DNA from: a virus
Direction: 5' to 3' (one strand)
Length of the DNA: 50,860 nucleotides
Virus record (IMG/VR): IMGVR_UViG_3300047408_000275
Span: 1-50,860 of that record
Every line of letters starts with the position of its first letter. The stretch's first letter is position 1. A model generated the notes under the pieces. The model was not told the origin of the DNA. It did not search any database and was given only the letters and a program-made list of their open reading frames with translations. Shown here piece by piece: positions 16,885 through 40,738 of the stretch. The position numbers and the translations under genes were made by a program.

Positions 16885-17210
16885 GGTCTCTGCAAAATGT
16901 AAAATTAATTTTGTTTGGGCACGCACTTGAATTCGTGAACTCAGACGAAAGAGCTCGCCTTATCATTTATCTTCGCATTAATAAAAAAAGAAGTTACGAA
17001 ATTTCTGAGGAATGCCATAGGTTATGGGATGGTGATTGGGGCAATCCCGAATTAAATTATGATATGGGAGAAGCCCTGTACAAAGCCGCTGAAGCGTTTT
17101 TAACAAATGATGTTCCGACTTCGTGGAATCATATAGGGAAAGCTCTCGAAGAGGCAATATACAAGAATGATCAACAAGATGAAAAATGGTGGGAGGGAAT
17201 GCTAAAATGA
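16881..17210 (+). CDS. hypothetical protein with DGDWG module (109 aa)
   Basis: Contains HRLWDGDWGNPELNYDMGEA and a following AAEAFL...SWN, shared with the C-terminus of the protein at 14560-14994, so the two are paralogues of one phage module. Coupled by overlap to both neighbours (ATGA at each end). Function unknown. Confidence 0.65.
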   Translation: MRSLQNVKLILFGHALEFVNSDERARLIIYLRINKKRSYEISEECHRLWDGDWGNPELNYDMGEALYKAAEAFLTNDVPTSWNHIGKALEEAIYKNDQQDEKWWEGMLK

Positions 17211-18202
17211 CTAGAAAGCTCGCTTCAATACGTATGATAGGGTCAATCTCTCCAATTGAAGGTGCTGACAATATAGAACTTGCTCATGTTGATGGCTGGC
17301 AATGTGTTGTTAAGAAAGGCGAGTTCATCGCGGGACAGCTTTGTGTTTATTTTGAGATAGACTCATTTTTGCCTATCCGACCAGAAAAGGAAGGGTTTAG
17401 GCTTCGGACGATTAAGCTGAGGGGGAAGATATCTCAGGGGTTAGCGATTCCTTTTCATTCTTTCCCCGGTATTGAATGTGATAAGGCTGACATTCTTGGA
17501 AGTGATGTTACAGAGCTTCTTGGAGTCTTAAAATACGATCCGCCTATCCCAGCTCAGCTTGCGGGAATCTGCAAAGGGAATTTCCCTTCTTTCATTAGAA
17601 AGATAGACCAAGAGCACGTGCAGAACCTATGGCATAAAATTAAAGATTGTGAAGAGCATTTTGAAGTTACGATTAAACTTGATGGGTCAAGTTGTACCTA
17701 TTACCTTAACGATGGAATATTTGGCGTATGCTCTCGAAACTTGGAGCTTAAAGAAGATGAGAATAATACCTTCTGGAAGATAGCTAAAAGGCACGATATT
17801 GAGTCTATTTTGAGAAATTACGGTAAAAATATAGCATTACAGGGAGAGGTCATAGGTGAAGGTATTCAAGGTAACCCGGAGAAGATAAAAGGTCAGGAAT
17901 TCTATTTGTTTGATATATGGGATATTGATAGGCAACAATATTTAGATCCGGAAGAACGAGCAGTATTGTGGAGCAAATGTCTTAAAGACAGAGGAGTTTG
18001 TTGGTGTCCGTATGCTGAAGAGTTTAAGATGCTTGCGCCAAGATTGTCTCAATTTAAAGACATTAATGAGCTTCTTGATGCTGCAAATGGAAAGTCATTG
18101 AATTCTGGAATGCGAGAAGGAATTGTTTTTAAGTCTATGGAAATTGGCTCCGGCTTAAGATTTAAGGTTATATCTAATGAGTATCTTTTAAAAGGATATT
18201 AA
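17207..18202 (+). CDS. RNA ligase, Rnl5/DRB0094-like (331 aa)
   Basis: The start follows GGGAGG and overlaps the previous stop. Nucleotidyltransferase motifs are in order: I KLDGSS (K157 is the adenylation site), Ia VCSRN (174-178), III EFYLFDIW (231-238), IV EGIVFKS and V RFKVIS. An N-terminal domain of about 110 residues (KLASIRMIGSISPIEGADNI... VKKGEFIAGQLCVYFEIDSF) matches the OB-like domain that precedes the ligase core in DRB0094-type enzymes. Such enzymes reseal nicked RNA, and in phages RNA ligases undo anticodon cleavage by host defences. No polynucleotide kinase partner is visible. Confidence 0.9.
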   Translation: MTRKLASIRMIGSISPIEGADNIELAHVDGWQCVVKKGEFIAGQLCVYFEIDSFLPIRPEKEGFRLRTIKLRGKISQGLAIPFHSFPGIECDKADILGSDVTELLGVLKYDPPIPAQLAGICKGNFPSFIRKIDQEHVQNLWHKIKDCEEHFEVTIKLDGSSCTYYLNDGIFGVCSRNLELKEDENNTFWKIAKRHDIESILRNYGKNIALQGEVIGEGIQGNPEKIKGQEFYLFDIWDIDRQQYLDPEERAVLWSKCLKDRGVCWCPYAEEFKMLAPRLSQFKDINELLDAANGKSLNSGMREGIVFKSMEIGSGLRFKVISNEYLLKGY

Positions 18203-18726: not shown

Positions 18727-18764
18727 GCCCTATATGTTCCTTTCCTGGCGTATAGGGCTTTTTT
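18727..18764 (+). terminator. rho-independent terminator
   Basis: GCCCTATA (18727-18734) pairs with TATAGGGC (18751-18758), followed by T6. It ends the 16405-18703 transcription unit. Confidence 0.88.
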
Positions 18765-18810: not shown

Positions 18811-19566
18811 ATGGAAATTAGTATAATCAGTATTTTCGCATTGTCGTCATTAGCGACAGCAGTAATGCTTGGAGCATGTTATTTATTTATCTCGCGTGAT
18901 TCAAAAGAGATAGAGCGACTGAACATCAGAAATGCGGAGCTGTTTTTCGATAATTCTATGCTTAATGCTCAAGTTGTTGAGCTAAAGAATGCGTTAGATA
19001 AAAGCATTGTCAAATGTAAGCTAATTGAAGATAAGGATTACTTTTTTAATCGCTTTATCTCACCAGCTTATGTAAAGTTAGATTCTGATAAACAGTTATT
19101 ATGCAAATCGCTCGGTGTTACCAAGGAGGAGTACGATAATGAAATGCGGAGGTATGAAGGCCTAGAAGAAACGCTTTTAACTTATCGTGTTCATGACTTG
19201 CTTTTAGAGTCTGGATATCTTTACTCCAAGAAGTTTAAGAATAGATTTTCAACTGGTGAATGCGACAACTGTAATCAGAAGATAAATAAGCTTATTGAAG
19301 AGATTCAGGATGTAACGCAATCGGAATGTCATTGTAAGGAAAAATTTAATGGGGAATTTTCTGTCGAAGATATTTCGAAATCAGACGCCCTGTCTAACGA
19401 AACTTTTGGTCTGCTGATAAAGAACGCGAAATCGAAGAATATCGGGCGAAGGAAAAGTGAAGATATTTCTGACGCAGAAGCACTGGCTGACGCAATTAGC
19501 AAGGGGATTAAACTGAAGATAAAGGCATCTGCTAAAAGCCAGGATAGCTATAGTTTCGACTTTTAA
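18811..19566 (+). CDS. membrane-anchored coiled-coil protein with Cys cluster (251 aa)
   Basis: AGAGGAG precedes the ATG. A transmembrane helix (IFALSSLATAVMLGACYLFI) is followed by a coiled coil (residues about 30-70). A cluster CDNC (about residue 151) and CHC (about 172) may bind zinc. The C-terminus is Lys/Ser-rich. Family unknown. First gene after the terminator at 18727-18764. Confidence 0.6.
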   Translation: MEISIISIFALSSLATAVMLGACYLFISRDSKEIERLNIRNAELFFDNSMLNAQVVELKNALDKSIVKCKLIEDKDYFFNRFISPAYVKLDSDKQLLCKSLGVTKEEYDNEMRRYEGLEETLLTYRVHDLLLESGYLYSKKFKNRFSTGECDNCNQKINKLIEEIQDVTQSECHCKEKFNGEFSVEDISKSDALSNETFGLLIKNAKSKNIGRRKSEDISDAEALADAISKGIKLKIKASAKSQDSYSFDF

Positions 19567-19645
19567 ATAACATGGGAATAGACATGGTTAAAATAAATGG
19601 TGTCTATAAGTATGCTTTTTGTGACTCAAGTTTATGGTCGCTTAC

Positions 19646-20131
19646 ATGAGCGATAATAGAAATCTAAGGATGTTGGAATTATTTCTTTCTCGGAAAGATG
19701 GAGCCCCAGAAGACGAATATCGTAAATGTCTTGCAGAATTTGAGGATATGATAAGAAAGCATGGATATTATAAGCTTGTGTGTAATTTCGATGTATCACA
19801 ATCTCTGACTGAGCCACCGATGTCACCTACGCCAATGCCAGTCATAAAATTATATCCAATTGAAAAAGACCGCGAGTCATTTTCTTTTAAATATATAAAA
19901 ATAACAGAGGAGGTTCTCTCAGATGATGATATTGAACAAAAACGTCAAGAATTTGAAAAACTTGATAAGATAAAATGTTCAGAGGATTTGGCTATGGCTA
20001 AGAAAATTACTTGCGATAGAAGAATTGAAGGTCGTGGACATTATTTCAAATATGAAAACCGCTATGAAAGCCACCAGGATTGTTGCGCATTCTGTGGAAA
20101 ATATGTGTGCGATATTATAAATGAATCTTGA
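19646..20131 (+). CDS. hypothetical protein with C-terminal zinc-type motif (161 aa)
   Basis: Start taken at MSDNRN, though an in-frame ATG at 19634 is possible; neither has a good Shine-Dalgarno. Acidic body with a proline segment (EPPMSPTPMPVIKLYPIE), and a C-terminus with HxxC-C-CxxC (HQDCCAFCGKYVC) that suggests metal binding. It overlaps the next gene by 11 bases. Unrecognised. Confidence 0.55.
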   Translation: MSDNRNLRMLELFLSRKDGAPEDEYRKCLAEFEDMIRKHGYYKLVCNFDVSQSLTEPPMSPTPMPVIKLYPIEKDRESFSFKYIKITEEVLSDDDIEQKRQEFEKLDKIKCSEDLAMAKKITCDRRIEGRGHYFKYENRYESHQDCCAFCGKYVCDIINES

Positions 20132-20849
20132 GCCAGAAGACTTAAAAATAGACATATTCGGCTACGGCCTTCCATCAGGAGAAAGCTATTATAGGGTAAC
20201 TCATATACCTACTGGGAAGATAGGCTGCTGCGACCAGCATTGTATTCGTCATTTTGAAATGAAAGACATATCAGACTCAGATAGAAAAGAATGTGCAATC
20301 CAAAGGTTGTTTAGTTTACTTAGAAACCAGCATGAATCTTATAAATCTGTTGCTCATGATATCTGCAATCATATGGCGGAGCGCGATATCGAGGATATCG
20401 GCATAAATGACGCCATAAATCAATATATCGAACATTATGATAATGCGTGGGAATACTTCAAAACAAACAATAAATTTAATCACCCTATAATTCCAAAATT
20501 CTTGCTTTCTAGAGAAATCGTGGAGCGCTTCCATGGAGAGGCGGCAGCAAGAAAAGCTTTCGATGATTGGGTGTATGAGTTTAAGAATAGAAAGCCATCG
20601 AGTATAGAAGAGAAAAATCTTTCGCATCATGAGGACAAGATTCCATTAAAGAACCTTCTTAAGAATTGTGGCCTGGTGAGCAGTACGTCAGAAGCATTGC
20701 GAATGATAAAACAAAATGGTGTTAAGATAGATGATATTATAGCATCAGAAGATGTTCCTATAGCGGCTGACAATGTATATAGGGTTTTCCAGGTCGGTAA
20801 AAAACGTTTTTTAAAGGTAAGAGCGTCAAATAGCAAGGGGTTTGCGTGA
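20121..20849 (+). CDS. protein with tyrosyl-tRNA synthetase C-terminal region and S4 domain (242 aa)
   Basis: Residues about 127-153 (FLLSREIVERFHGEAAARKA) and 174-234 (KNLLKNCGLVSSTSEALRMI, then VKIDD and YRVFQVGKKRFLKV) match the end of bacterial TyrRS: the LAxEIVxxFHG helix and the S4 RNA-binding domain that grips tRNA-Tyr. The catalytic Rossmann domain (HIGH, KMSKS) is absent. The first 75 residues are unrelated to TyrRS; YRVTHIPTG faintly recalls the release-factor core strand, but no GGQ is present. It probably binds tRNA or other RNA. It lies between accessory genes and just before NADAR. Confidence 0.8.
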   Translation: MNLEPEDLKIDIFGYGLPSGESYYRVTHIPTGKIGCCDQHCIRHFEMKDISDSDRKECAIQRLFSLLRNQHESYKSVAHDICNHMAERDIEDIGINDAINQYIEHYDNAWEYFKTNNKFNHPIIPKFLLSREIVERFHGEAAARKAFDDWVYEFKNRKPSSIEEKNLSHHEDKIPLKNLLKNCGLVSSTSEALRMIKQNGVKIDDIIASEDVPIAADNVYRVFQVGKKRFLKVRASNSKGFA

Positions 20850-21295
20850 TGACTGATTACATATTTTATAAAGGTGATCCCCATGTGTTTTCAAACTTTC
20901 ACATCGCGCCTATACATATAGATGGTAAGGTTTGGGCTACATCTGAGCATTATTTTCAGGCGATGAAATTTCATGGTTATGATGATGAGCATAAAGAGAA
21001 AATAAGATTAGCCGAGACTACTGGTAAAGCATATAGGTTAGCATGGGAAAAAAAGATACCCTGCTCTAACTGGGATGAAATAAGAAATGATGTTATGCGA
21101 AAGGCTTTGCTGAATAAATTTGGTCAACATGTTGAGCTTGAAAAAATACTTCTTGATACTGGAGAAAAGAATATAGTACAGCGTTGCAGTAAGGATAAGT
21201 ACTGGGGCGATGGATATCCCGGTAAGGGGGAGAATATGTTAGGAAAGCTTTTGATGGAAACTAGGGAAAGGATTCGACGATATGAAAGCATTTGA
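20849..21295 (+). CDS. NADAR (YbiA/DUF1768) N-glycosidase (148 aa)
   Basis: The ATG overlaps the upstream stop (TGATG), with AGGGG upstream. Signature parts: DPHVFSNFHIAPIHIDGKVW, TSEHYFQAMKF (E33 in the catalytic position), and KYWGDGYPGKGENMLGKLLM with a following R. NADAR enzymes cleave N-glycosidic bonds of riboflavin intermediates and ADP-ribose conjugates; the antitoxin DarG1 uses this domain to remove DNA ADP-ribosylation made by DarT1. A phage copy could reverse such defence marks. Confidence 0.92.
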   Translation: MTDYIFYKGDPHVFSNFHIAPIHIDGKVWATSEHYFQAMKFHGYDDEHKEKIRLAETTGKAYRLAWEKKIPCSNWDEIRNDVMRKALLNKFGQHVELEKILLDTGEKNIVQRCSKDKYWGDGYPGKGENMLGKLLMETRERIRRYESI

Positions 21296-22986: not shown

Positions 22987-23062
22987 TCCCCCTTAGCTCA
23001 GCTGGTAGAGCACGCGGTTGTTACCCACTAGGTCGGTGGTTCGAGTCCATCAGGGGGAGCCA
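22987..23062 (+). tRNA. tRNA-Asn (GTT)
   Basis: 76 bases including an encoded CCA. The acceptor stem TCCCCCT/AGGGGGA, D-arm GCTC/GAGC and T-arm GGTGG/CCATC with TTCGAGT loop are canonical; the discriminator is G. The anticodon loop TTGTTAC gives GTT (Asn). The anticodon stem CGCGG/CCACT pairs at only three of five positions (27-43 C/T and 29-41 C/A are mismatched). It sits just before the terminase gene. Confidence 0.9.
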
Positions 23063-24858: not shown

Positions 24859-25320
24859 ATGATTAGTACTGAGAAAAAGTTTAAGGATAAAGTGACATAT
24901 GAACCAGGTGATTTAGAATTTTATCAAAAAATGTGGAGAATAGATCCAGATGCGGCAAAGAGCTGGATTGTAAACAGACTAAATACATTGATTGAAATTC
25001 AGGAGTATATAAAGACTGAAATAAAGCAATTGCGAGATATGTCAAATTATCCAGAAGATAAAAAAGCACTCGATTATTATAATTCTACTGGCGGCGAGAA
25101 AAGAACGTATTCTAGAACCGGTAATAATAAAACGATAGTTTTAGATTATATGCGTGAAAATCTTAATAAGAACGTTAGGATGAAGGAAATTATTAATAAA
25201 TTTCTTTCATTGGGTTCTGCTTCCGTTAATGTATATAATGTTATGAATGACATGGTTAAAGACGGTTCCATAAAGCGTGTAGGATATGGGACATATTCAC
25301 TTTCAGAGACAGATAATTAA
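24859..25320 (+). CDS. putative winged-helix regulator (153 aa)
   Basis: GGGAG precedes the ATG at 24859; the frame is open further upstream but overlaps terL, so the later start is preferred. The first half is a helical, coiled-coil-like region. The last 60 residues (IVLDYMRENLNKNVRMKEII, VNVYNVMNDMVKDGSIKRVG, YGTYSL) have the helix-turn-helix plus wing pattern. It may regulate the late genes or the dyads just upstream. Confidence 0.6.
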   Translation: MISTEKKFKDKVTYEPGDLEFYQKMWRIDPDAAKSWIVNRLNTLIEIQEYIKTEIKQLRDMSNYPEDKKALDYYNSTGGEKRTYSRTGNNKTIVLDYMRENLNKNVRMKEIINKFLSLGSASVNVYNVMNDMVKDGSIKRVGYGTYSLSETDN

Positions 25321-25339
25321 TTCAAGCAGGAGCATTAAA

Positions 25340-26122
25340 ATGTTAAGTTATCACAACGACGCTAACCTTAAGGGCTTGGTGGTTGCAGAGATGCGTAAGC
25401 ATCAGGAATCGGACCAGTTTATAAAAGGTGCATATGAAAGGTTAAATGGTAAATTCAAAGGCTGTGCCGTTGGGTGTACGATTGATTCTCTGAATATAAT
25501 CCTTTGTAAATCGTACAAAACTGATGATCATAAGGTATTCGAAGAAGCTATTGGAGTTCCTGAGTGGTTAGCGAGGCTTCAGGATTTGTTATTTGAACGG
25601 CTTCCGATAGGGGGGAATAGTCAATTTGCAGTAGATTTTCTTGAAGCGATTCCGGTTGGTATAAATCTTGATCGAGTAAAATGGAAGTTCTGTTCTTTTA
25701 TATTAAAAGAAGGAATAGACAGGATGCTTTCTCAGCCTAACTTATCAGATGAATTACGAGAACAGGTCGTAAATTCTATGAGAGGGGTTTTAAGTCTACA
25801 TGAATCAGCAATAAATACAGGTGAATGGAATATTGAAGCGGCGGAGTCGGCGAGGTTGGCGGCGGAGGCGGCGGCGTGGTCGGTGGCGAGGTCGGCGTGG
25901 TCGGCGGCGAGGTCGGCGGCGTGGTCGGCGGCGTGGTCGGCGTGGTCGGCGGAGTCAGCGGCGAGGTCGGCGGCGGAGTCGGCGGAGTCGGCGGCGTGGT
26001 CGGCGAGGTCGGCGAGGTCGGTGGCGAGGTCGGCGGAGGCGGCGGCGGAGTCGGCGGCGGAGTCGGCGGCTTATAAACGATATGCAGGGGAATTGATTAG
26101 ATTATTAAAAGAAGAGAGATAA
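25340..26122 (+). CDS. phage protein with Ala/Ser/Trp/Arg repeat tail (260 aa)
   Basis: CAGGAG precedes the ATG. Residues 1-165 form a conserved phage domain (KGCAVGCTID, FEEAIGVPEWLARLQDLLFE, FLEAIPVGINLDRVKWKFC). Residues about 168-245 are an irregular repeat of AAESAARSAAWSA-type tripeptides, and the C-terminus returns to normal (YAGELIRLLKEER). I recall similar phage proteins with this domain and an Ala/Ser repeat before a short helical end; the function is unknown. Confidence 0.7.
   Translation: MLSYHNDANLKGLVVAEMRKHQESDQFIKGAYERLNGKFKGCAVGCTIDSLNIILCKSYKTDDHKVFEEAIGVPEWLARLQDLLFERLPIGGNSQFAVDFLEAIPVGINLDRVKWKFCSFILKEGIDRMLSQPNLSDELREQVVNSMRGVLSLHESAINTGEWNIEAAESARLAAEAAAWSVARSAWSAARSAAWSAAWSAWSAESAARSAAESAESAAWSARSARSVARSAEAAAESAAESAAYKRYAGELIRLLKEER
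25838..26070. repeat. GC-rich trinucleotide/9-mer repeat tract
   Basis: About 230 bases built from GCG-GCG-(G/T)(A/G)G-TCG-type units, almost lacking C outside TCG/GCG and much richer in G than the surrounding DNA. It is read in frame as Ala, Ser, Trp, Arg and Glu and stays open in other + frames. The many GG runs could form G-quadruplexes on the + strand. Confidence 0.92.
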
Positions 26123-38458: not shown

Positions 38459-40738
38459 ATGATTAATTTAAACTCTCCCACAACATTTACTTCTGGTTTA
38501 TTAGTAACGGACACTTATCGCCCTGTCGGCGGCTCCCCTGATTCTATTCCTACTCTATCTGAAAATGGTAATGGAGCTATCAGTTCTGCGCTTGAGATAA
38601 ATTCAACCTCTGGTGGTGTTCTTATTCCTAGGATGACGACTGCACAAATTAACTTGCTGAATGCTGATAACGCATTAATGGTTTATGACACAACGCTTAA
38701 CCAGTTTAAGTTTTTTCAAGGCGGTGCTTTCGTTGCATATAGTACAGGTGGTGGCGCTGGATATTCTCCAGGAAACCCTACATTTCTACAAGATACATCT
38801 GCTGCTGGTACATTTAATGTATCTGTTGGTACGCCACCTGCGACATTTGGTGGGGGCGGAATGCGAATCGTGGCTATTGGTGACCAAGCCGTAGAATCAA
38901 ACACAAACGGAACTGACCTGATTGCCATAGGGTACCGAAGCTTAATTGGAAATACGACCGGATCATTTAATATAGCCATCGGAACACAATCTATGCTTCT
39001 TAATACAGTCGGCTCTAATTGTACAGCTGTAGGATATAGGGCGCTATTTTCTAATGATGCCGATAATAATACTGCCGTCGGATATTTTGCCCTTAATCTT
39101 AATGCCGACGGAATTGACAATGTAGCTGTAGGCGGACTTGCTTTAGAGTCAAATGATAAAGGGGACTATAATACAGCCGTCGGATATCTAGCATTGGCTT
39201 CAATTCAAACTACGGATGACTCATCTGCATTTGGAAATCGAGCACTTACTAACAGTGTCGGTGGGGAAAACTCTGCTTTTGGTTCTCTCGCGGGAACGTC
39301 GAACGCTACTGGGATCATTGATTGTTTTGGTTTCTCTTCCTTAACATCTAATACAAGCGGTATTCATAATAGCGCATTTTCCGCACTATCGATGGCGGAA
39401 AACGTAGACGGCTCTAACAATAGTTCTTTTGGTACATTCTCTCTTCAGCATAATATATCTGGCTCAAGAAACTGTGCTTTTGGTGCATTCAGCGCAAGAG
39501 CTAATACAGGAAGCGATAACTCAGTATATGGTTATTTTGCATTAGATTCTAATGCTGCTGGGAATCAAAACTCATCATTTGGCGCTGCGTCCTTACGTTC
39601 AGCAACCGCAGTTTCCGATTGCTCTGCATTTGGATATAACGCGCTTACCGTTAACCAATCTAATGAAAACACTGCATTTGGATCACTTTGTGCTAGCTCA
39701 AATACGACTGGCGTAAATATAACGGCTATGGGATATCAATCCATAACTTCAAATATTAGCGGAAACGATTTAACTTCCATAGGATTTTTAGCGCTTTCTG
39801 CAAATACGACTGGTGATAATTGTACAGCTGTTGGTTCTCTGGCGCTATCATTAAGTAACGGGGATAATAATACTGCTGTAGGATTCCATGCCCTTCAATC
39901 TAACACGACTGGAACGGATAATTGTTCAGTTGGAACATCTGCATTAGGTTCAAATGTTGGAGGAAGTTTCAATACATCAGTTGGCTCTGGCTCAAATTCT
40001 GTTAGCACAGCAAGCAACAATAGCTCATTCGGATATCAAAGTTTAAATATCAATTCTGATGGTAACTCTAACTCGGCATTTGGTTATCAAGCCGGTGCGT
40101 TCATTGTGCACGGAGACAGCAACGTATTCGTAGGAGACGATGCAGGTGGAAATACAGCTGCCACTTTTAATAATTGTACATTCATAGGAAGCGGTGCTAA
40201 TGCAAGTGTGGATGGGTTGACTAATGCTACCGCTATTGGAAATAACGCTTCTGTTGCAATAAGTAATGCACTTGTACTTGGTGATTCAACGGCGCCTACA
40301 TTCGTTGGTATTGGAACGGATAGTCCAGAAAATGAACTGCACGTTCTTGGGGTTATTCAGCTTAGATCAACATCAGCCATCACAGGTTCAGGCGTATTTT
40401 TTCAACAATATACTGGACCGACAACAGTTGCAGGCAGAATATTCTTTCCGCTTGATACTTCGTTAACTATTCAAACAGTGGTTGTCAAGGTAACTATATG
40501 TATCACCGCTGGCGTTGGTTCTGCTGCTTATGGATCTTCAACCTGTGCAGCCATATGGAATGGAGCCTCAACGGTATCTGTAGGCGCAATCCCAACAATT
40601 ACGCTCACCAATGGTGGAGTAGTAACGCCTGCCGCCACCTGGAGCATATCTGGAAATAATTTAGCTTTGACAATGAGCACTGGCGGTCTTCCTGAACGGT
40701 ATATGGTGAGCGCTGAATATTTTTACGATGATGTTTAG
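38459..40738 (+). CDS. tail fibre with beta-roll head-type repeats (759 aa)
   Basis: N-terminus contains STSGGVLIPRMTTAQINLLN, an attachment-type motif. Residues about 150-600 contain some 20 repeats of the pattern N-(T/S)-A-(V/F)-G-(Y/F)-x-A-L-x-(S/A)-N-x-x-G, which form left-handed beta-rolls in YadA-type trimeric adhesins. A segment VGIGTDSPENELHVLGVIQL follows, often found just before chaperone or tail-end domains; here a beta-rich C-terminal domain of about 130 aa follows and no S74 catalytic Ser/Lys pair is evident. Confidence 0.78.
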   Translation: MINLNSPTTFTSGLLVTDTYRPVGGSPDSIPTLSENGNGAISSALEINSTSGGVLIPRMTTAQINLLNADNALMVYDTTLNQFKFFQGGAFVAYSTGGGAGYSPGNPTFLQDTSAAGTFNVSVGTPPATFGGGGMRIVAIGDQAVESNTNGTDLIAIGYRSLIGNTTGSFNIAIGTQSMLLNTVGSNCTAVGYRALFSNDADNNTAVGYFALNLNADGIDNVAVGGLALESNDKGDYNTAVGYLALASIQTTDDSSAFGNRALTNSVGGENSAFGSLAGTSNATGIIDCFGFSSLTSNTSGIHNSAFSALSMAENVDGSNNSSFGTFSLQHNISGSRNCAFGAFSARANTGSDNSVYGYFALDSNAAGNQNSSFGAASLRSATAVSDCSAFGYNALTVNQSNENTAFGSLCASSNTTGVNITAMGYQSITSNISGNDLTSIGFLALSANTTGDNCTAVGSLALSLSNGDNNTAVGFHALQSNTTGTDNCSVGTSALGSNVGGSFNTSVGSGSNSVSTASNNSSFGYQSLNINSDGNSNSAFGYQAGAFIVHGDSNVFVGDDAGGNTAATFNNCTFIGSGANASVDGLTNATAIGNNASVAISNALVLGDSTAPTFVGIGTDSPENELHVLGVIQLRSTSAITGSGVFFQQYTGPTTVAGRIFFPLDTSLTIQTVVVKVTICITAGVGSAAYGSSTCAAIWNGASTVSVGAIPTITLTNGGVVTPAATWSISGNNLALTMSTGGLPERYMVSAEYFYDDV

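What the first reader, a model, noticed from the sequence alone, without database searches (positions are those of the whole stretch)
20121..20849. Phage chimera ending in the S4 tail of tyrosyl-tRNA synthetase
The last ~115 residues match the C-terminal helix and S4 domain of bacterial TyrRS, while the whole catalytic domain is missing and replaced by ~120 unrelated residues. A tRNA-binding module without catalysis could shield, sequester or present tRNA-Tyr, perhaps together with the nearby RNA ligase. The N-terminal VTHIPTG segment recalls the release-factor core without GGQ. I know of no described phage system using this arrangement.
Basis: partly seen in the sequence, partly recalled or inferred. 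Interest (0 to 1): 0.8.

Follow-up and report, generated by a model that had tools for sequence, protein, structure and literature searches.

The report
Phage fusion: release-factor piece plus TyrRS tail
A phage gene joins a release-factor-like domain that has lost its catalytic GGQ loop to the tRNA-gripping tail of a bacterial tyrosyl-tRNA synthetase; neither enzyme's active site is present, so it is probably a non-catalytic RNA-binding (perhaps tRNA-binding) protein of a design not found elsewhere in the collections searched.

Summary
Window 20121-20849 encodes 242 aa. Residues ~117-234 are the C-terminal helix plus S4 domain of a proteobacterial-type TyrRS (TIGR00234 1.7e-13; next S4 family 0.0096; AlphaFold S4 part pLDDT 93-97; Foldseek top hits are TyrRS:tRNA-Tyr complexes). 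The N-terminal half is not a decayed TyrRS catalytic domain (shuffle z 0.1). Residues 1-~68 are a release-factor domain-3 homologue without GGQ (profile vs PDB: RF2 at 1.7e-7, almost only RFs; z 11.6). Residues ~50-118 are helical, origin unknown. A sister phage (L002, terminase 93% identical) has a syntenic S4 protein with the same tail (43%) on a different N-terminus, and carries the RF-like domain as a separate 84-aa gene. So two separable modules are fused here. In bacteria the tail was seen only on full-length TyrRS. Neighbouring RNA ligase and NADAR genes are absent from the sister's syntenic stretch, so an RNA-ligase partnership is not supported. Best reading: a non-catalytic RNA-binding protein aimed by a captured TyrRS domain, probably at tRNA-Tyr or tRNA-like RNA, in an accessory operon. 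Target and effect are untested. New variant of a known kind (free-standing synthetase-domain paralogue).

The parts
20121..20849 (+). CDS of the chimera (242 aa). Start overlaps the stop of the gene before it by 11 nt; stop overlaps the NADAR gene after it by 4 nt
   Evidence: reading frame has the phage's own codon bias over the whole ORF (not clear for residues 1-50 alone)
20121..20324 (+). Residues 1-68: release-factor domain-3-like module, GGQ loop lost and shortened; strands 8-13, 23-28, 34-37 and helix 52-68 in the model
   Evidence: Foldseek RF1 1rq0 rank 27, E 0.034; top viral fold hit is a phage RF-1 protein, E 0.032
20271..20474 (+). Residues 51-118: helical middle part of unknown origin
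   Evidence: model helices 74-85 and 94-115 at low confidence; only sub-threshold Pfam hits
20469..20822 (+). Residues 117-234: C-terminal part of a bacterial TyrRS (end of helical domain plus S4 domain)
20631..20822 (+). Residues 171-234: S4 core, with STSEALR (188-194) and GKK (226-228) motifs shared with TyrRS and the sister protein
   Evidence: pLDDT mostly 93-97; conserved columns
20846..21295 (+). NADAR-domain protein, same operon, overlapping start; not in the sister phage's syntenic stretch
   Evidence: PF08719 2.8e-32, TIGR02464 2.8e-36
19634..20131 (+). Upstream gene of the same operon, no family
18811..19566 (+). First gene after the terminator-like site, homologue in the sister phage
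18727..18758 (+). Intrinsic-terminator-like hairpin, 12 pairs plus T run; conserved in L002 (88.6% nt)
17186..18202 (+).
   Evidence: TIGR02306 4e-57
22987..23062 (+). tRNA-Asn(gtt), the only tRNA gene of the window; also in L002

Best explanation
A phage protein built from two translation-factor pieces, each without its active site. The tail is the tRNA-binding C-terminal domain of a bacterial tyrosyl-tRNA synthetase, captured in this phage lineage and diverged since. The front is a GGQ-less release-factor domain-3 module of the kind phages carry as small separate proteins. Shown by sequence: identity of both modules, absence of both catalytic sites, conservation of the tail in a sister phage while the front is different, operon setting in a variable accessory stretch. 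Inferred: the S4 domain still grips RNA, most likely the variable-arm/anticodon-arm side of tRNA-Tyr or a similarly shaped RNA, and brings the exchangeable N-terminal module to it. The effect is then non-catalytic: masking the RNA, or interfering with or tuning translation during infection.
For: Tail = TyrRS by several profiles and by fold. Front = RF domain 3 by profile, shuffles and (weakly) fold. Sister phage L002: same tail at the syntenic place with a different N-terminus, and the RF-like domain as a separate gene. The two phage tails group together, 96/95, apart from the bacterial TyrRS sampled, and share a C-terminal SKG extension and GKKRFLKVR. Tail under constraint: S4 part dN 0.36, dS 1.61. 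The TyrRS S4 domain binds the region between variable and anticodon arms (PMC4275181; PMC6310243).
Against: No binding data. dS is near saturation, so the constraint estimate is rough. Only two phages carry the family in the collections searched. Isolated TyrRS C-terminal domains bind RNA non-specifically (PMC4275181), so specificity for tRNA-Tyr may be lost. The N-terminal model is low confidence (blocks pLDDT 37-62). Tree branches of the two phage rows are long.
Confidence: 0.5

Rival explanations
1. tRNA-Tyr shield: the protein covers or holds host tRNA-Tyr so that host anti-phage nucleases cannot deplete it, with repair by the phage RNA ligase.
For: Tail descends from the tRNA-Tyr-binding domain. 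A defence that depletes tRNA-Tyr exists: retron-Eco7 PtuAB (PMC11555353). An RNA ligase lies 1.9 kb upstream and a NADAR gene directly downstream.
Against: RNA ligase lies before a terminator-like site in another unit and is missing with NADAR from the sister's syntenic stretch, where the S4 protein stays. No tRNA-Tyr in the phage. Does not explain the RF-like module.
Confidence: 0.15
2. Ribosome-directed factor: as in Hsp15 or RqcP, the S4 fold binds the ribosome or ribosome-bound tRNA, and the GGQ-less RF-like domain docks near the A site without hydrolysis, blocking or tuning termination, rescue or quality control.
For: Both modules come from proteins that work on tRNA or the ribosome. Hsp15, a bacterial RQC-complex chain and RF structures occur further down the fold-search list. 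Stand-alone GGQ-less RF-like proteins occur in other phages, and in the two Acinetobacter phages read they lie beside phage tRNA genes.
Against: The tail is clearly closer to TyrRS than to Hsp15, RqcP or other S4 families. RF domain 2 (stop-codon reading) is absent. The RF-like loop is shortened, so placement in the peptidyl-transferase centre is doubtful.
Confidence: 0.25
3. Relic: a chance gene fusion of captured host fragments, drifting without function.
For: Both catalytic parts are gone; only two phages have the tail; the N-terminal half differs wholly between them.
Against: Open frame with coding bias, tight operon overlaps, tail retained at the same place in a sister phage with dN/dS below 1 and key motifs intact.
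Confidence: 0.1

Closest known systems
Bacterial tyrosyl-tRNA synthetase, C-terminal (S4) domain; TIGR00234, PF22421/PF16714; PDB 1h3e
   Same: Residues 117-234 align with the last ~113 residues; same fold and motifs
   Different: No Rossmann catalytic domain, no HIGH/KMSKS, different N-terminus, C-terminal SKG extension
Phage stand-alone RF-1-domain proteins without GGQ (Pseudomonas phage TehO UDF60328.1; Acinetobacter phage Apostate YP_009886418.1; cf. PHROG 20323)
   Same: Residues 1-48 are 47% identical to TehO; GGQ also absent there: GASAW, GARRW, GASNW
   Different: Those keep the loop length with a Trp in place of the Gln and are not fused to an S4/TyrRS tail
Class I release factors RF1/RF2 (domain 3)
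   Same: Domain-3 sequence with the THIPTG motif
   Different: No GGQ, no domain 2 or 4
Free-standing synthetase-domain paralogues (Trbp111/CsaA, AlaX; from own knowledge)
   Same: An aaRS tRNA-binding or accessory domain used without aminoacylation
   Different: Those derive from other domains; no TyrRS-tail example fused to an RF-like module was found
CYT-18 type mitochondrial TyrRS (group I intron splicing), PMC4275181
   Same: TyrRS C-terminal domain re-used for another RNA
   Different: CYT-18 keeps the whole enzyme

Membership tests
Tyrosyl-tRNA synthetase | C-terminal helical/S4 tRNA-binding domain | tested here: met
   TIGR00234 E 1.7e-13 over profile 292-404/406; Foldseek 2.4e-7
Tyrosyl-tRNA synthetase | Class I catalytic domain with HIGH and KMSKS | tested here: not met
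   No motif, alignment z 0.1
Class I peptide release factor | Domain 3 sequence/fold | tested here: met
   Profile A2 vs PDB: RF2 1.7e-7; z 11.6; the fold itself rests on a low-confidence model
Class I peptide release factor | GGQ catalytic motif | tested here: not met
   Absent
Class I peptide release factor | Stop-codon reading domain 2 | tested here: not met
   No match outside domain 3 in any profile search
Phage GGQ-less RF-1-domain proteins | RF domain 3 without GGQ | tested here: met
   PHROG 20323 E 0.0037, z 14.8 to TehO
Phage GGQ-less RF-1-domain proteins | GAxxW loop seen in the three examples read | tested here: not met
   Loop is shortened in this protein
tRNA-Tyr-binding protein | Specific binding to tRNA-Tyr | not testable with these tools
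   Needs purified protein
Anti-defence (tRNA protection) protein | Rescue from a tRNA-depleting defence | not testable with these tools
   Needs a plaque assay

The most novel reading that the evidence does not exclude
A phage translation-interference factor that grips tRNA-Tyr (free or ribosome-bound) with a captured TyrRS domain and presents a catalytically dead release-factor domain, so as to protect tRNA or to block termination/rescue, with N-terminal modules exchanged between related phages.
Probability: 0.15. Interest if true: 0.8.

Novelty: new variant of a known kind. Interest (0 to 1): 0.55.

Why it matters
It joins two separate translation factors, each stripped of its active site, in one small phage protein and gives a sister phage in which the parts are separate. 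If it binds tRNA-Tyr it would be a protein-based way for a phage to handle a tRNA that some host defences attack. It also draws attention to a broader group of GGQ-less phage proteins filed as release factors that cannot be peptidyl-tRNA hydrolases of the usual GGQ kind.

Tried and rejected
N-terminus as a degenerate TyrRS catalytic domain: rejected (z 0.1). Tail as another S4 family (YaaA, ribosomal S4, RluF, Hsp15): rejected, all far weaker. RNA ligase as obligate partner: not supported. Phage tRNA-Tyr or other known RNA as built-in target: none found. Frameshift or assembly artefact joining two neighbouring genes: unlikely, since the modules lie about 2 kb apart in L002. Middle part as WIYLD (0.0035 at best) or LmuA (0.0024): too weak, treated as chance. 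Pattern scans for more family members: P0001, A1, A2, A3, A4 and A7 gave no member beyond L002. Hits in 'phages' records MT836568 and MT837450 are full-length TyrRS genes on contigs that look bacterial. Homology between the L002 S4 protein's N-terminus and the RF-like domain: not significant (z 2.0 and 0.7).

Full report
OBSERVATION. The ORF at 20121-20849 (+) encodes 242 aa. Residues 126-234 match the end of the TyrRS model TIGR00234 (50.4 bits, 1.7e-13, profile 292-404 of 406); the next S4-type model there, YaaA, scores 16.1 bits. Pfam S4 and TyrRS C-terminal models hit the same place below their cut-offs; a phage TyrRS PHROG hits at 3.8e-7 and the PDB TyrRS 6byq at 4.9e-7 over residues 117-234.

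THE TAIL. A genome scan with a tail alignment returned 80 loci, mostly Gammaproteobacteria with a few other Proteobacteria, at 39-50% identity; all 80 are open frames of about 400 aa or more, i.e. complete TyrRS. A search of 369 genomes of the class of G002 (Oceanimonas, a gammaproteobacterium) found matches in 277; every listed one lies in a frame of at least 356 aa (the list is cut). So no tail without catalytic domain was seen in bacteria. In IMG/VR the tail pattern found the sister phage L002, one complete TyrRS, two TyrRS pieces cut by contig ends, and a pair of contigs with a separate 82-aa S4 protein. The pattern scans need exact short motifs, so distant members can be missed.

THE FRONT. 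Residues 1-118 have no similarity to the TyrRS catalytic part (z 0.1) and no HIGH or KMSKS. Residues 1-75 align with RF2 (z 11.6), RF1 (10.8) and the 164-aa release-factor-like protein of Pseudomonas phage TehO (14.8) (47% identity over 48 residues). A profile of this N-terminus and the 84-aa L002 protein finds RF2/RF1 domain 3 in the PDB at 1.7e-7, with 41 of 42 hits being release factors. GGQ is absent in both, and in the three stand-alone phage RF-like proteins read here: RF2 GAGGQ; TehO GASAW; Apostate GARRW; PhT2 GASNW. Here the loop is shortened as well.

STRUCTURE. AlphaFold2 (24 sequences) gives pLDDT 93-97 for most of the S4 part, 74-87 for much of the helix 123-155, and 37-62 for the front, whose strands 8-13, 23-28, 34-37 and helix 52-68 fit the RF domain-3 order (the RF order is from general knowledge). 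Foldseek against the PDB ranks T. thermophilus TyrRS:tRNA-Tyr complexes first (2.4e-7), with RF1 1rq0 at rank 27 (0.034). Against viral models the first hit is a Mycobacterium phage RF-1 protein at 0.032, and nothing matches the tail convincingly.

SISTER PHAGE. L002 (IMGVR_UViG_3300037264_003955, 12.3 kb) shares terminase (93%) and portal (94%) with the window. At the syntenic place it has a 207-aa protein with the same tail (43% over 122 residues; 70% nt over window 20605-20840) but an N-terminus with no detectable similarity to either TyrRS or the RF-like domain. An 84-aa RF-like gene lies at L002:2704-2958, where the window has a small ORF and the RNA ligase. The RNA ligase and NADAR genes are not on the L002 contig; they may lie elsewhere in that phage. 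The two tails group together (96/95) on long branches. NG86 gives dN 0.36 and dS 1.61 for the S4 part; dS is near saturation, so this is only a sign of constraint.

SETTING. A terminator-like hairpin at 18727-18758, conserved in L002, separates the RNA ligase unit from a run of genes 18811-21295 in which the chimera overlaps both neighbours (such hairpins are no more frequent in this region than in shuffles, so the conservation is the better evidence). The gene before it has no family; the one after is a NADAR protein. NADAR enzymes reverse guanine ADP-ribosylation (PMC11125620, abstract). Together with the low identity of this stretch between sisters compared with the structural genes, this looks like an accessory region, possibly of counter-defence kind; that is inference.

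MECHANISM. [quoted passage not shown] removal of the domain lowers tRNA-Tyr affinity (PMC6310243). The STSE..R and GKK motifs are kept in both phage proteins. I therefore think the tail still binds RNA, tRNA-Tyr being the first candidate, and that the exchangeable front gives the effect without catalysis. Shield, ribosome and relic rivals are listed. Retron-Eco7 shows that tRNA-Tyr can be a defence target (PMC11555353), but nothing here ties this phage to it.

NOVELTY. Reuse of synthetase domains without aminoacylation is a known kind (Trbp111, AlaX; own knowledge) and stand-alone RF-like phage proteins are known by annotation. I found no record of this fusion in the collections and the open-access papers searched. 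The only other catalysis-free TyrRS-type S4 protein seen in a virus is the 82-aa one on L111/L112. Subscription literature was not searched.

Noticed in passing
L021:14-508; L124:392-628; L126:389-625: Stand-alone phage proteins, two of them annotated as release factor or peptidyl-tRNA hydrolase, lack GGQ and show GAxxW instead (TehO, Apostate, PhT2); in the two Acinetobacter phages they lie near phage tRNA genes. 127 phage-collection records match TehO's protein, some of them ordinary RFs.
   Followed up: partly
L111:2680-2928 (also L112): An unrelated viral contig pair has an 82-aa stand-alone S4 protein that scores best against TyrRS (5.4e-6; next S4 family 0.0029).
   Followed up: partly
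L002:2704-2958: Separate 84-aa RF-like gene without GGQ, at the place where the window has the RNA ligase.
   Followed up: yes
window 20846-21295: NADAR-domain gene overlapping the chimera's stop codon; candidate counter-defence or riboflavin-intermediate hydrolase.
   Followed up: partly
window 25286-26122: ORF with a long Ala/Ser/Trp/Arg-rich repeat tail (SAWSAARSAAWSA...) shortly after the terminase.
   Followed up: no
window 38459-40738: 759-aa ORF with many NTAVGYxAL-like repeats, resembling a trimeric-adhesin-like tail fibre.
   Followed up: no
window 22987-23062; L002:6821-6897: tRNA-Asn(gtt) kept just upstream of the terminase in both sister phages.
   Followed up: no
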